Assembly (NCBI RefSeq): GCF_024345575.1
Contig: NZ_JAGQBJ010000012.1
Span: 1-64,000 of the forward strand
DNA length: 64,000 nucleotides
Source: Cyanobium sp. Morenito 9A2
GTDB taxonomy: Bacteria > Cyanobacteriota > Cyanobacteriia > PCC-6307 > Cyanobiaceae
Direction of reading: 5' to 3'
How positions within the stretch are numbered: position 1 is the first letter of the stretch; every line of letters starts with the position of its first letter. The notes beneath the pieces were generated by a model that made no database searches, was not told the DNA's origin, and was given only the letters and a program-made list of their open reading frames with translations. Shown here piece by piece: positions 3,613 to 7,739 of the stretch. Made by a program: the position numbers and the translations under genes.

Positions 3613-4883
3613 ATGACCTACCCCACCAAGCCCCGGTGCCGATTCACGGCGCTGCGGAAACAGGAGGCTGTCGCGTTCTGCCCCCAGGATGGCCTCTCCT
3701 GCTCCGCCGTCGCCCGGCGGCTCGGCCTTCCCTCCAGCAGCCTGGCCCGCTGGGTGCTCCAGGCCCGGATAGCCCGTGATGATGGCGGCCCCGGGACCCA
3801 GGGCCTGCTGACCATTGAGGAGAGGGCAGCGTTGAACAGGCTCCGCCAGGAGAACCGAGAGCACAGGAGGGAGAAGGATTTTCAGGCTGGCGGCAGCGCA
3901 CTTTGCGTAGTCCGCAGGTCTTCCCTTTGCGGTGAGAGCAGCTGCCGCCGAGAGGTTTCGGTTGATCCACCATCTGACGGTCCGCTTCTCCGTCTCCTGG
4001 CTGTGCCGGCAGCTTGGGGTGGCCCGCAGTGGCTCCTCCGCCTGGCTGCAGCGGCAGGAACACCCAGGACCCAGGGCTCGTGAGAACGCTGTGATCACCG
4101 CTGAGATTCAGGAGGTGCTCCAACGGCACCGTGGCTTTTACGGCTCCCCGCGCGTCCACCGGGAGTTGGCGGCTGGCGGCCACGAGGTCGGCCGCCACCG
4201 TGTGGCCGGGCTCATGAAACGCACTGACCTCAAGGCCAGGACCCGCAGGGGGTTGCGGCCCTGTCGCAAGGCCAGCAGCGGCGCCTGCGGAGTGGCGAAG
4301 AATCTGCAGCAGCAGGACTTCCAGCCTCCGGCTCCGTAGCCGCAGACTTCTCGCGCAGCGAGTATCGCTGCTGGGCTGGTGACATCACCTGCATCCGCAC
4401 CACGGCCGGCTGGAGGTACCTGGCCGTCTGGGTCGATCTGTTCAGTCGCCGGGTGGTCGGCTGGAAGATCGACCGCCGGATGGAGGCGTCTCTTGTGGTG
4501 GAGGCGCACAACCGGTCCCTTGGCCACCGGCAGGTGGAGCCAGAGCAACTTATCCTCCACACGGATCAGGGCAGCCAATACCGGGCTGCTGACTACCGCG
4601 ATCTGCTCAGGGAGCAGAAGATCGTCTGCAGCATGTCCGCCAAGGGCTGATGCTGGGACAACGTTGTGGTGGAGAGCTTTTTTCCACCCTCACACTGGAA
4701 TTGGACCTCGATGACAATCGAGAGGTGCTGATCTCACCCCAGCAGCTGCAGCGTGACCTGGCCTTCTGGGTTGATGGCTACTGCAACTGGGAGCGTCGCC
4801 ATTCAACAATCGGTTACCTCAGCCCGATTGATGATGGGCAACAGTTCATCACTGCCCTTCAACTCACCCCTGTGAAGCCCTGA
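3613..4883 (+). pseudogene. Degenerate IS3-family transposase (orfA + orfB remnants)
   Basis: The orfA part (from 3613) has a helix-turn-helix-like start with SCSAVARRLGLPSSSLARW. The orfB part, beginning near 3880, retains RHRGFYGSPRVHRELAAG, then VVGWKIDRRMEASLVVEA, the DDE-type segment ILHTDQGSQYRAADY, and the C-terminal block RRHSTIGYLSPID. Translation is interrupted several times. There is a stop in the orfA/orfB overlap (TAG where a lysine codon is expected), a stop at 4337-4339, a TGA at 4648-4650 just after SAKG, and a frameshift near 4680. A programmed frameshift between orfA and orfB is normal in IS3 elements; the other lesions are not, so the element should be inactive. Terminal repeats and target duplication could not be fixed. 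Confidence 0.85.
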
Positions 4884-5385: not shown

Positions 5386-5622
5386 TCAGAAACAGAAGGG
5401 AAGAAACTGGGTATGGCAGGCGGTGTAGCCATCAACCAGAGGACCGAGACCGATCTGGTGGGCAATGCCGGCACCGGTCAATCCCTCTGTGATAATGCCG
5501 ATCACGATGCCGAGCATGGCTGCGCGGCCATTGAAAAGCTCAGCACGCTTGAGTTGCTCCATGTGGACCTGATGGATAGGGCCGTCCTGGAAGAAAGTCT
5601 TGTTGGCTGGGGTGTTGGTCAT
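5386..5622 (-). CDS. hli: High-light-inducible protein (Hlip/SCP), 78 aa
   Basis: This is a single-helix member of the chlorophyll a/b-binding superfamily. Hlips bind chlorophyll and carotenoid in thylakoid membranes, protect photosystem II assembly and quench energy under high light. The core RAELFNGRAAMLGIVIGI contains the family motif ExxNGRxAMxG, followed by a hydrophobic helix ending in GLTGAGIAHQIGLG. An extra C-terminal tail (about 15 residues, two cysteines) makes it longer than the 47-aa Hlip upstream. The start at 5622 (MTNTPANK) was preferred to a frame extension to 5730, because the extra 36 residues look non-coding and overlap the upstream micro-ORF. It is the last gene of a four-ORF minus-strand cluster. 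Confidence 0.9.
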   Translation of the reverse strand: MTNTPANKTFFQDGPIHQVHMEQLKRAELFNGRAAMLGIVIGIITEGLTGAGIAHQIGLGPLVDGYTACHTQFLPFCF

Positions 5623-5656: not shown

Positions 5657-5734
5657 TCAGTCCGCGAATCTTGGCTGTAGCAGTGCAAGGCAAACCCAGG
5701 CACCGATGAGGACGATGCTGAGGGAGGCAATCAT
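5657..5734 (-). CDS. Putative 25-aa single-transmembrane micro-protein
   Basis: The peptide begins MIASLSIVLIGAWVC and ends LLQPRFAD, so one short hydrophobic helix makes up most of it. Its ATG overlaps the stop of the preceding 38-aa ORF in an ATGA junction, suggesting translational coupling, and it ends 34 nt before the second hli start. No family is recognised. Support is positional (co-directional, coupled, between two hli genes) plus the membrane-helix pattern, so it could still be chance. Confidence 0.45.
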   Translation of the reverse strand: MIASLSIVLIGAWVCLALLQPRFAD

Positions 5735-5847
5735 CGGTGCCTCGGCGCAAGGTCGCTCGGACGACTGAGCACATAGGTCACCATGGAGGTGAGGGCGAGG
5801 ACAAGGCCGATGACGGCGGTGATAGCTGTGGTGTAGTCGCTGCTCAT
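5731..5847 (-). CDS. Putative 38-aa single-transmembrane micro-protein
   Basis: The peptide starts MSSDYTTAITAVIGLVLAL and continues through a hydrophobic helix to a short basic tail (SRPSDLAPRHR). Its start lies 5 nt after the stop of the 47-aa Hlip, and its stop overlaps the next ATG. Layout and size resemble small single-helix photosystem accessory subunits, but no known Psb or Ycf family is matched. A role as an Hlip or photosystem partner is inference only. Confidence 0.55.
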   Translation of the reverse strand: MSSDYTTAITAVIGLVLALTSMVTYVLSRPSDLAPRHR

Positions 5848-5852
5848 GGCAA

Positions 5853-5996
5853 TCAGCCCAGACCGATCTGGGAAAGGATGCCCTGGCCGGTGAGCAGTTC
5901 GGTACCAAGTCCGATCACGAAGCCGAGCATGGCCAGACGGCCATTCCAGGTCTCAGCGAAAGCAACGAAACCAAAGCGCGGGGAGGAATCAGCCAT
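5853..5996 (-). CDS. hli: High-light-inducible protein (Hlip/SCP), 47 aa
   Basis: This compact one-helix Hlip has the motif ETWNGRLAMLGFVIGLGTEL in its centre and ends GQGILSQIGLG. The length matches the short HliC-type proteins. The start at 5996 (MADSSPRF) was chosen over an extension to 6068, which would run through an HLR1-like regulatory motif. It is the first gene of the cluster hli - 38 aa - 25 aa - hli. In other cyanobacteria Hlips are induced by high light and associate with chlorophyll synthase and photosystem II assembly complexes. Confidence 0.92.
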   Translation of the reverse strand: MADSSPRFGFVAFAETWNGRLAMLGFVIGLGTELLTGQGILSQIGLG

Positions 5997-6019: not shown

Positions 6020-6037
6020 ATTGTAACAGGTTGTAAA
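6020..6037 (-). promoter_or_regulatory. HLR1-like (RpaB-binding) direct repeat upstream of the hli cluster
   Basis: Read on the minus strand the site is TTTACAACCTGTTACAAT: two copies of (G/T)TTACA(A/T)(A/T) with a 2-nt spacer. It matches the published high-light regulatory 1 consensus except for one base (C for A/T at the last position of the first repeat). It ends 23 nt upstream of the 47-aa hli start codon. Known HLR1 sites bind the response regulator RpaB in front of light-regulated genes. At this distance a repressor position overlapping the promoter or leader is more likely than an activator position. Confidence 0.65.
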
Positions 6038-6407: not shown

Positions 6408-7739
6408 TCAGCGCCGGCAGGGGCGCACCAACAGGCCCTGCTTCGGCGAGGGGCTGGGGATGAGGCTGAGCGTCAGGTCCTGATCCGGCTCCAGCTCCAC
6501 GCTCAGCTGTTTGAGCAGCCCCACCGCCAGCAGGCGGATCTCCAGCTCGGCCAGCGCCTTGCCCAGGCAGACCCGCTCACCACCTCCGTAGGGCAGCAGG
6601 GTGACGGTGCGCTCGACCGCCAGGTGACGCTGGGGCCGGAACACCTCCAGATCCTCGCTGCCGCTTCCGTAGCGATGGCTGGCGGCGATGCTGACCTGCA
6701 CCACCCGATCGGCCGGCACCAGCACACCCGCCAGGGCAATCGGCTCCCGGGTGCGGCGGAAGAAGCCCCCCACCGGCGGGGTGAGCCGCATCACTTCTTT
6801 CAGCGCCGCATCGAGGCGCGGGGCACGGCTGGCCTCAAAGGCGGTCACGGCCTCCCCGGGCGCTGGAGGCCAGGGCAAGCCGTCGAGTTCCTGCTGCAGC
6901 CAGGCCAGCTCGGCGGGGTGTTGCAGCAGGCTCAGCAGCAGGCAGCTCAGCGAAGAGGCGGTGGTTTCGTAGCCGGCGAACAGCAGCAGCAACAGCTGCT
7001 CGGCCACGTCGTCATCGCCCAGGGGAAGGCCAGCTTCATCCAGGCCACCGGCCAGCAGATCGAGCCCGCCGGCCGCGAGGGGCGCTCCAGCGGCTGCGGC
7101 GCTCTGCGCCTTCTTGAGCACGGCGCCCAGGCGTTGAAGCAGCCGTTGGCGGGCCTGAAGGGCTTGGGCGTAGGGGCTGCCGGGCAGGGCGAACGGCAGG
7201 GAAAACAGTCCCTGGCACCAGGTTTCGAAGTCCACGAACAGGGCCTCGCGATCGACGGGATCCAGCCCCAGCACCGTGCTGGCGATCACGCTGAAGGCGA
7301 AGCGCCTCAGCTTGGGCACCAGGGCCACGGGCGATGCGCCGCCGAGCAGCTCCCCGCTGAGCTCATCGACCAAAGCCACGATCGCCGGGCTGTAGCGCTT
7401 GAGGGCAGAGGAAGCGAACAGCTGGCCCACCACCCGACGACGGGCCTTGTGATCGACGCCGTTGCGGTTGGCCAGCGACAGGGGTCCCAGCAGCTTGCGC
7501 ACACTCTCCGGCCACCATCCCTCGACGGCATCGCCCTGGGCGAACAGGTCGCTGATCGCCTTCTCCCCCCGGATGAACACGGTGCGCTGCCCCAGAAGGG
7601 TGGTGCCGTACACATCGCCGTAGCGCTCGAAGCGGGAGCGGGCGAAATCTGGATCACGAAGGAAGGAGAGGGTCTCGAGCACCCCGCTCACAGCTGGCGT
7701 GATCGGCAGCGGCCGAAGGGTGGCGGGATCGAACAGCAA
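6408..7739 (-). CDS. Cytochrome P450 (CYP120-like)
   Basis: This is a 443-aa haem-thiolate monooxygenase. The haem-binding loop LPYGGGERVCLGKALAE carries the axial Cys391, the I-helix reads LLLLLFAGYETTASS (oxygen-activation AGxxT), and the K-helix ExxR is in LKEVMRLTPP. Overall it resembles cyanobacterial CYP120-type P450s, whose characterised member hydroxylates retinoids; substrate here is inference. There is no membrane anchor, so it is probably soluble and needs separate electron donors. It is transcribed divergently from a CRY-DASH gene across about 105 nt. Confidence 0.9.
   Translation of the reverse strand: MLFDPATLRPLPITPAVSGVLETLSFLRDPDFARSRFERYGDVYGTTLLGQRTVFIRGEKAISDLFAQGDAVEGWWPESVRKLLGPLSLANRNGVDHKARRRVVGQLFASSALKRYSPAIVALVDELSGELLGGASPVALVPKLRRFAFSVIASTVLGLDPVDREALFVDFETWCQGLFSLPFALPGSPYAQALQARQRLLQRLGAVLKKAQSAAAAGAPLAAGGLDLLAGGLDEAGLPLGDDDVAEQLLLLLFAGYETTASSLSCLLLSLLQHPAELAWLQQELDGLPWPPAPGEAVTAFEASRAPRLDAALKEVMRLTPPVGGFFRRTREPIALAGVLVPADRVVQVSIAASHRYGSGSEDLEVFRPQRHLAVERTVTLLPYGGGERVCLGKALAELEIRLLAVGLLKQLSVELEPDQDLTLSLIPSPSPKQGLLVRPCRR

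What the first reader, a model, noticed from the sequence alone, without database searches (positions are those of the whole stretch)
5657..5847. Two translationally coupled single-helix micro-ORFs between two hli genes
A 38-aa and a 25-aa membrane peptide are encoded back-to-back (ATGA overlap). They begin 5 nt after a 47-aa Hlip and end 34 nt before a 78-aa Hlip. All four ORFs share one strand and apparently one promoter. Small single-helix proteins are typical of photosystem assembly and antenna complexes, so these could be undescribed Hlip partners.
Basis: partly seen in the sequence, partly recalled or inferred. Interest (0 to 1): 0.65.

Follow-up and report, generated by a model that had tools for sequence, protein, structure and literature searches.

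The report
Hidden small proteins beside light-protection genes
Between two genes for light-protection proteins (Hlips), this Synechococcus/Cyanobium-type cyanobacterium carries two tiny overlapping genes for one-helix membrane proteins; the larger belongs to a conserved, unnamed family with high-light-type promoters, so it is probably an overlooked helper of photosystem protection or repair.

Summary
On the minus strand, Hlip47, a 5-nt gap, a 38-aa ORF, an ATGA overlap, a 25-aa ORF, a 34-nt gap and Hlip78 follow each other. Both small ORFs look like real genes. The 38-aa protein belongs to a family with invariant D-Y and P-[S/T]-D (103 distinct sequences), found in 142 of 300 genomes of the window's family and not credibly elsewhere in its class. 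Pfam, NCBIfam, PHROGs and the PDB hold no credible match. Both ORFs show purifying selection: median dN/dS 0.25 (38 aa) and 0.32 (25 aa). In the Cyanobium-type group, 60 of 64 copies lie beside an hli gene and 45 lie between two; 28 carry the 25-aa partner. An HLR1 (RpaB high-light) element stands at -41 of Hlip47 in 44 of 53 loci and precedes many copies without an upstream hli. Marine paralogues are mostly separate from hli but often keep HLR1. Best explanation: a high-light-induced, non-pigment, single-helix accessory subunit made together with Hlips. That it binds Hlips or a photosystem assembly complex is inference; no expression or interaction data were available.

The parts
6020..6037 (-). 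HLR1-like direct repeat TTTACAAC-CT-GTTACAAT, 41 nt upstream of the Hlip47 ATG; presumed RpaB site
   Evidence: 15 of 16 consensus positions; the only match in the window, expected 0.01; at -41 in 44 of 53 hli-led Cyanobium-type loci. Consensus from PMC11633204; Synechocystis ssl2542 has its HLR1 at -42 (PMC6331805).
5853..5996 (-). Hlip47, 47 aa, HliC-like high-light-inducible protein
   Evidence: Pfam PF00504 E 2e-4; matches solved HliD chains 9sau/9sas at E 5e-8/2e-7; same length as Synechocystis HliC (47 aa, PMC5126843).
5731..5847 (-). 38-aa single-helix protein, the conserved family member
   Evidence: helix at residues 2-27, mean pLDDT 89.6.
5657..5734 (-). 25-aa hydrophobic peptide, coupled to the 38-aa ORF by ATGA
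   Evidence: Same overlap and sequence pattern in 25 loci; median dN/dS 0.32.
5386..5622 (-). Hlip78, 78 aa, high-light-inducible protein with conserved C-terminus CHTQFLPFCF
   Evidence: Pfam PF00504 E 4e-5; a Hlip lies within 150 nt downstream in 52 of 64 Cyanobium-type loci.

Best explanation
The 38-aa ORF encodes a single-pass, presumably thylakoid, membrane protein of a family specific to the Synechococcus/Cyanobium lineage. It is repressed by RpaB in low light and released in high light together with a HliC-like Hlip; translation passes from Hlip47 through the 38-aa and 25-aa ORFs towards Hlip78 by short-gap and ATGA coupling, so the four proteins are made together. Having no chlorophyll-binding motif, the 38-aa protein most likely serves as an accessory helix beside Hlips on a photosystem assembly or repair complex, in the manner of Psb34 or Psb35, with the 25-aa peptide as an optional second helix. 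Shown here: reading frames, selection, synteny and promoter element. Inferred: the induction itself, the coupling, thylakoid location, and the binding partner.
For: Family in 142/300 genomes and 19/59 genera of the window's family. In the Cyanobium-type group 53/64 sit directly after a 47-49-aa Hlip, 49 of them with exactly 5 nt between, and 45/64 lie between two Hlips; WH 5701 and other named strains are among them. In genomes with several copies (e.g. Cyanobium T1B-Tous, ATX 6A2) the copies examined lie beside hli genes. Marine copies beside Hlips mostly overlap the Hlip stop by 1 nt. HLR1 score of at least 13/16 in 68 of 83 members against 0.8% of shuffles, also where the 38-aa gene leads the operon. 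dN/dS 0.23-0.25 and 0.32. Invariant D4, Y5, P30, D32. Helix 2-27 with high confidence. HLR1 close to the start is the arrangement of derepressed-in-high-light hli genes (PMC6331805, PMC11633204).
Against: No transcript, protein or interaction data. 39 of 49 sampled marine paralogues are not next to hli, and 18 of the 49 do not reach HLR1 13/16, so the function need not require Hlips. Many hliC copies have no 38-aa gene beside them: three solo copies in the window's own genome, and one genome keeps Hlip47-Hlip78 without the cassette. The family is absent from the small Prochlorococcus-sized genomes listed, most of which still carry HliC-like genes.
Confidence: 0.55

Rival explanations
1. A SliP4-like electron-transport accessory: the 38-aa protein helps NDH-1 associate with photosystems for cyclic electron flow in high light and shares only its promoter with hli genes.
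For: SliP4 is also a 37-aa, single-helix, RpaB-controlled high-light protein (PMC12850537; PMC5126843). Many marine paralogues have HLR1 but no hli neighbour.
Against: 60/64 Cyanobium-type copies are beside hli genes, mostly with fixed 3-5 nt spacing, tighter than shared regulation needs. The ends of SliP4 readable from the published primers (MSNLIAVA......SLNLPE) lack the DY and P[ST]DL motifs.
Confidence: 0.2
2. A structural or assembly subunit of a photosystem or the cytochrome b6f complex in this lineage, a distant PsbN-like or other small subunit, not specific to Hlips.
For: Single helix and photosynthesis-type regulation; weak profile similarity to PsbN over 40 columns (hhalign E 0.003, probability 10%).
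Against: 15 of 150 column-shuffled PsbN profiles score as high. A separate true PsbN is present in the genome. No PDB small subunit matches (best E 7.1). High-light-type promoter and patchy presence are unlike a core subunit.
Confidence: 0.15
3. The 25-aa ORF acts mainly as a translational relay or spacer that sets the Hlip78 level, its peptide being of little importance, while the 38-aa protein is functional.
For: The 25-aa ORF was not found in 36 of 64 Cyanobium-type loci; in L004, L034, L077 and L088 a downstream Hlip itself overlaps the 38-aa stop by ATGA.
Against: Median dN/dS 0.32, with the GAW...LLQP core largely kept. Some marine copies carry other 31-aa hydrophobic partners at the same place.
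Confidence: 0.1

Closest known systems
Psb34 (Ssl1498 / Tsl0063)
   Same: Small single-helix protein without chlorophyll ligands; works alongside Hlips, modulating their binding to CP47-containing PSII intermediates (PMC9458560)
   Different: Psb34 has an N-terminal arm like that of HliA/B; the 38-aa protein has almost no N-terminus before its helix and no detectable similarity to any PDB chain
Psb35 (Ssl2148)
   Same: Small membrane protein that stabilises the CP47 module and its Hlips (PMC9145668)
   Different: Described in that review as an Hlip/one-helix homologue; the 38-aa family has no Hlip similarity (hhalign probability 0.6%).
SliP4 / HliR1 of Synechocystis
   Same: 37 aa, one helix, strongly high-light induced, RpaB controlled
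   Different: Different terminal sequences; gene lies upstream of sodB, not in an hli operon; reported only from Synechocystis in the 2016 paper
High-light-inducible proteins (Hlip/Scp)
   Same: Same operon, same promoter type, one helix
   Different: The ExxNxR chlorophyll-binding motif is absent from the 38-aa and 25-aa proteins
PsbN (PF02468)
   Same: One helix followed by a PS..L segment
   Different: Similarity not beyond shuffled controls; the true PsbN is a separate gene

Membership tests
Hlip / CAB-ELIP-HLIP superfamily | ExxNxR (ExxNGR) chlorophyll-binding motif in the helix | tested here: not met
   Absent from the 103 distinct 38-aa-type and 27 distinct 25-aa-type sequences listed; Pfam PF00504 matches neither window ORF
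Hlip / CAB-ELIP-HLIP superfamily | profile similarity to Hlips | tested here: not met
   hhalign probability 0.6% and 0.4% for 38 aa, 0.1% for 25 aa; Hlip47 against Hlip78 as positive control 98.9%
PsbN | match to PF02468 or profile similarity above chance | tested here: not met
   No Pfam match; hhalign E 0.003, equalled by 15/150 shuffles
Psb34 | sequence similarity to solved Psb34 chains | tested here: not met
   Profile search of all PDB chains gives no match below E 7.1; assumes the Psb34 chains of the T. elongatus intermediates are in that set
Psb34 | HliA/B-like N-terminal arm that binds CP47 | tested here: not met
   The predicted helix starts at residue 2; only a few residues precede the hydrophobic stretch
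SliP4 | sequence homology | tested here: inconclusive
   Only the ends, read from published primers, could be compared; the DY and P[ST]DL motifs are not in them
Psb35 | sequence homology to Ssl2148 | not tested
   The sequence and the original paper were not available
RpaB high-light regulon | HLR1 element near the start of the transcript | tested here: met
   Window copy 15/16; 68/83 members at 13/16 or better against 0.8% of shuffles. Transcript start itself not mapped
RpaB high-light regulon | RpaB binding and induction in high light | not testable with these tools
   No ChIP or expression data held for these genomes

The most novel reading that the evidence does not exclude
A lineage-specific class of high-light-induced single-helix proteins, expanded to up to six copies per genome, works as dedicated non-pigment partners of Hlips, copies bringing their own second small membrane protein (25-aa, 31-aa 'SLP', 31-aa 'TQDLL', or DUF2973), giving Synechococcus and Cyanobium a modular photosystem-repair toolkit that other cyanobacteria lack.
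Probability: 0.25. Interest if true: 0.8.

Novelty: new variant of a known kind. Interest (0 to 1): 0.58.

Why it matters
Hlips bind chlorophyll and carotenoid as dimers and take part in delivering chlorophyll to newly made PSII, but the small helices that accompany them are known mainly from Synechocystis and Thermosynechococcus. Here is a protein family, unnamed in the libraries searched, that is co-encoded with HliC-like genes at fixed spacing and placed behind a high-light element across Synechococcus/Cyanobium, with paralogues in marine Synechococcus. It gives a direct gene list for pull-downs and mutants in an ecologically dominant group, and shows that ORFs under 40 aa in photosynthesis operons can escape the family libraries.

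Tried and rejected
PsbN homology: the hhalign hit (E 0.003) was matched by 10% of column-shuffled PsbN profiles. Degenerate Hlip: no profile similarity. Phage origin: no match in 50,697 phage records or in IMG/VR contigs. Chance ORFs: rejected by conservation and dN/dS. The first profile (A1) was too diverse for the contig scans; the closer alignment A2 worked. A literature search for DUF2973 found nothing, and the Psb35 paper is not held, so whether DUF2973 and Psb35 are one family could not be tested. Sigma-70 promoter scan: no site found. A structure search with the predicted helix was not run because a lone helix is uninformative.

Full report
Observation. The window holds, on the minus strand, Hlip47 (5996..5853), 5 nt, a 38-aa ORF (5847..5731), an ATGA overlap, a 25-aa ORF (5734..5657), 34 nt, and Hlip78 (5622..5386). 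The two Hlips are confirmed by Pfam Chloroa_b-bind, and Hlip47 also matches the solved HliD chains 9sau and 9sas. Hlip47 has the length and short N-terminus of HliC (47 aa in PMC5126843); calling it HliC-like is inference.

The 38-aa protein is a conserved family. A single-sequence search of 60 relatives gave matches in 14 genomes, the weakest of them doubtful; a profile (A1) found 142 of 300 genomes of the window's family, 116 of 197 high-quality ones and 19 of 59 genera, with up to six copies. In 291 genomes of the class, all strong matches lay in the window's own family; the weak ones elsewhere (E 0.001-0.1) are mostly in long unrelated frames. Many small genomes of Prochlorococcus size have none. 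Named carriers of the Cyanobium-type branch include Synechococcus sp. WH 5701, Cyanobium spp., Vulcanococcus limneticus and many MAGs. Some unnamed marine genomes have contig lengths that I recall as those of Synechococcus CC9311 (G244), CC9902 (G264), CC9605 (G238) and RCC307 (G025); that is memory, not a test. Over 103 distinct sequences M1, D4, Y5, P30 and D32 are invariant; A8, I9, L27 and L33 are in about 94% or more. Pfam, NCBIfam, PHROGs and PDB give no credible match. AlphaFold gives one helix, residues 2-27, mean pLDDT 89.6.

Both ORFs are under protein-level selection. For 16 loci with a 25-aa partner, pN/pS is 0.42 and median dN/dS 0.32, against 0.62 and 2.4 in the +1 and +2 frames. 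The 38-aa ORF gives a median of 0.23 in the same loci, 0.25 over 59 Cyanobium-type sequences and 0.21 over 18 marine ones. These are pairwise counts among related sequences, so no significance is attached to them.

Synteny. Loci were collected by the 38-aa protein alone, not by hli. Of 64 Cyanobium-type members, 53 lie directly after a Hlip of about 47 aa (49 with exactly 5 nt, 3 with 4, 1 with 3), 52 have a Hlip within 150 nt downstream, 45 have both and 60 have either. The 25-aa partner is in 28, with the ATGA overlap in 25. In L004, L034, L077 and L088 the downstream Hlip itself overlaps the 38-aa stop by ATGA. Of 49 sampled marine-type members, 10 follow a Hlip (9 with a 1-nt overlap, 1 with a 9-nt gap); nine are followed by a 31-aa 'SLP' peptide, nine by a 31-aa 'TQDLL' peptide and three by a DUF2973 protein at 0-4 nt. 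The marine sample was chosen from the listed matches and is not random.

Regulation. The HLR1 consensus (G/T)TTACA(T/A)(T/A)NN(G/T)TTACA(T/A)(T/A) (PMC11633204) occurs once in the window with up to two mismatches, at 6020-6037 minus, 41 nt before the Hlip47 ATG; 0.01 are expected. It is at -41 in 44 of 53 hli-led Cyanobium-type loci. Over 83 members 68 score at least 13/16, against 0.8% of shuffles. Where no Hlip leads, HLR1 often sits right before the 38-aa gene. In Synechocystis, ssl2542 has HLR1 at -42, and HLR1 near the transcription start means repression by RpaB in low light and release in high light (PMC6331805). Induction in the present organism is therefore predicted, not shown.

The cassette is optional. 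The window's genome has other HliC-like genes without a 38-aa neighbour (L216-L218), and genome G019 carries Hlip47-55 nt-Hlip78 without the cassette, a natural empty arrangement. A decayed second cassette, with the 38-aa start codon replaced by CTG at the same 5-nt spacing, lies at G000 contig 1, 626-885.

Mechanism. The 38-aa protein has no chlorophyll ligand motif, a very short N-terminus and, in most members, a positively charged C-terminal tail; by the positive-inside rule the C-terminus should face the cytoplasm (inference). HliC is the stress-induced Hlip that forms heterodimers with HliD, HliA and HliB on ChlG/Ycf39 and on PSII intermediates (PMC12142464), and small non-pigment helices such as Psb34 adjust Hlip binding to CP47 (PMC9458560). 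Making the 38-aa protein in step with an HliC-like protein fits a role as accessory helix on such complexes. The main rival is a SliP4-like role in cyclic electron flow. Nothing here decides between them; the fixed coupling to hli favours the first, the hli-free marine paralogues favour the second.

Verdict. The finding is real and stronger than first stated: two conserved micro-genes, the larger a family of its own, placed behind a high-light element. Physical partnership with Hlips remains a hypothesis. I searched three family libraries, the PDB, phage and viral collections and eight literature queries; ORFs of this size may already carry 'hypothetical protein' labels in genome records or Cyanorak clusters that I could not see.

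Noticed in passing
L132, L136, L149: Marine paralogues of the 38-aa protein are followed at 0-4 nt by a DUF2973 (PF11189) small membrane protein; L132 and L136 have HLR1 upstream. Whether DUF2973 is related to Psb35 could not be tested.
   Followed up: partly
L008, L056, L057, L064, L065, L146, L150, L155, L158 (SLP type); L011, L018, L060, L126-L130, L135 (TQDLL type): Two further conserved 31-aa hydrophobic peptides follow marine 38-aa genes; neither type matches Pfam, and the TQDLL type also had no NCBIfam or PHROGs match.
   Followed up: partly
L019, L020, L021, L235-L241: A paralogous subfamily ending QPNDDDFGD, homologous to the 38-aa family by profile (97%); the three copies examined have neither an hli neighbour nor HLR1; in 242 genomes of the class it was found only in the two marine genera g5 and g35.
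   Followed up: partly
L215:626-885 (G000 contig 1): Decayed second hli-38aa cassette in the window's own genome: Hlip with NGH instead of NGR, and a 38-aa remnant without a start codon.
   Followed up: partly
L216, L223, L230, L234: Solo HliC-like genes of several genomes are followed by a similar larger gene (begins MAHALVFVLAPQE or alike), a different hliC neighbourhood.
   Followed up: no
window 3613-4883: Overlapping frames resembling a broken IS3-type transposase lie about 500 nt from the downstream end of the hli operon; identified by eye only.
   Followed up: no
window 6408-7739 (-): 443-aa ORF with cytochrome P450 signatures (GGGERVCLG) upstream of the hli operon, next to an ORF on the other strand resembling a photolyase/cryptochrome; identified by eye only.
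   Followed up: no
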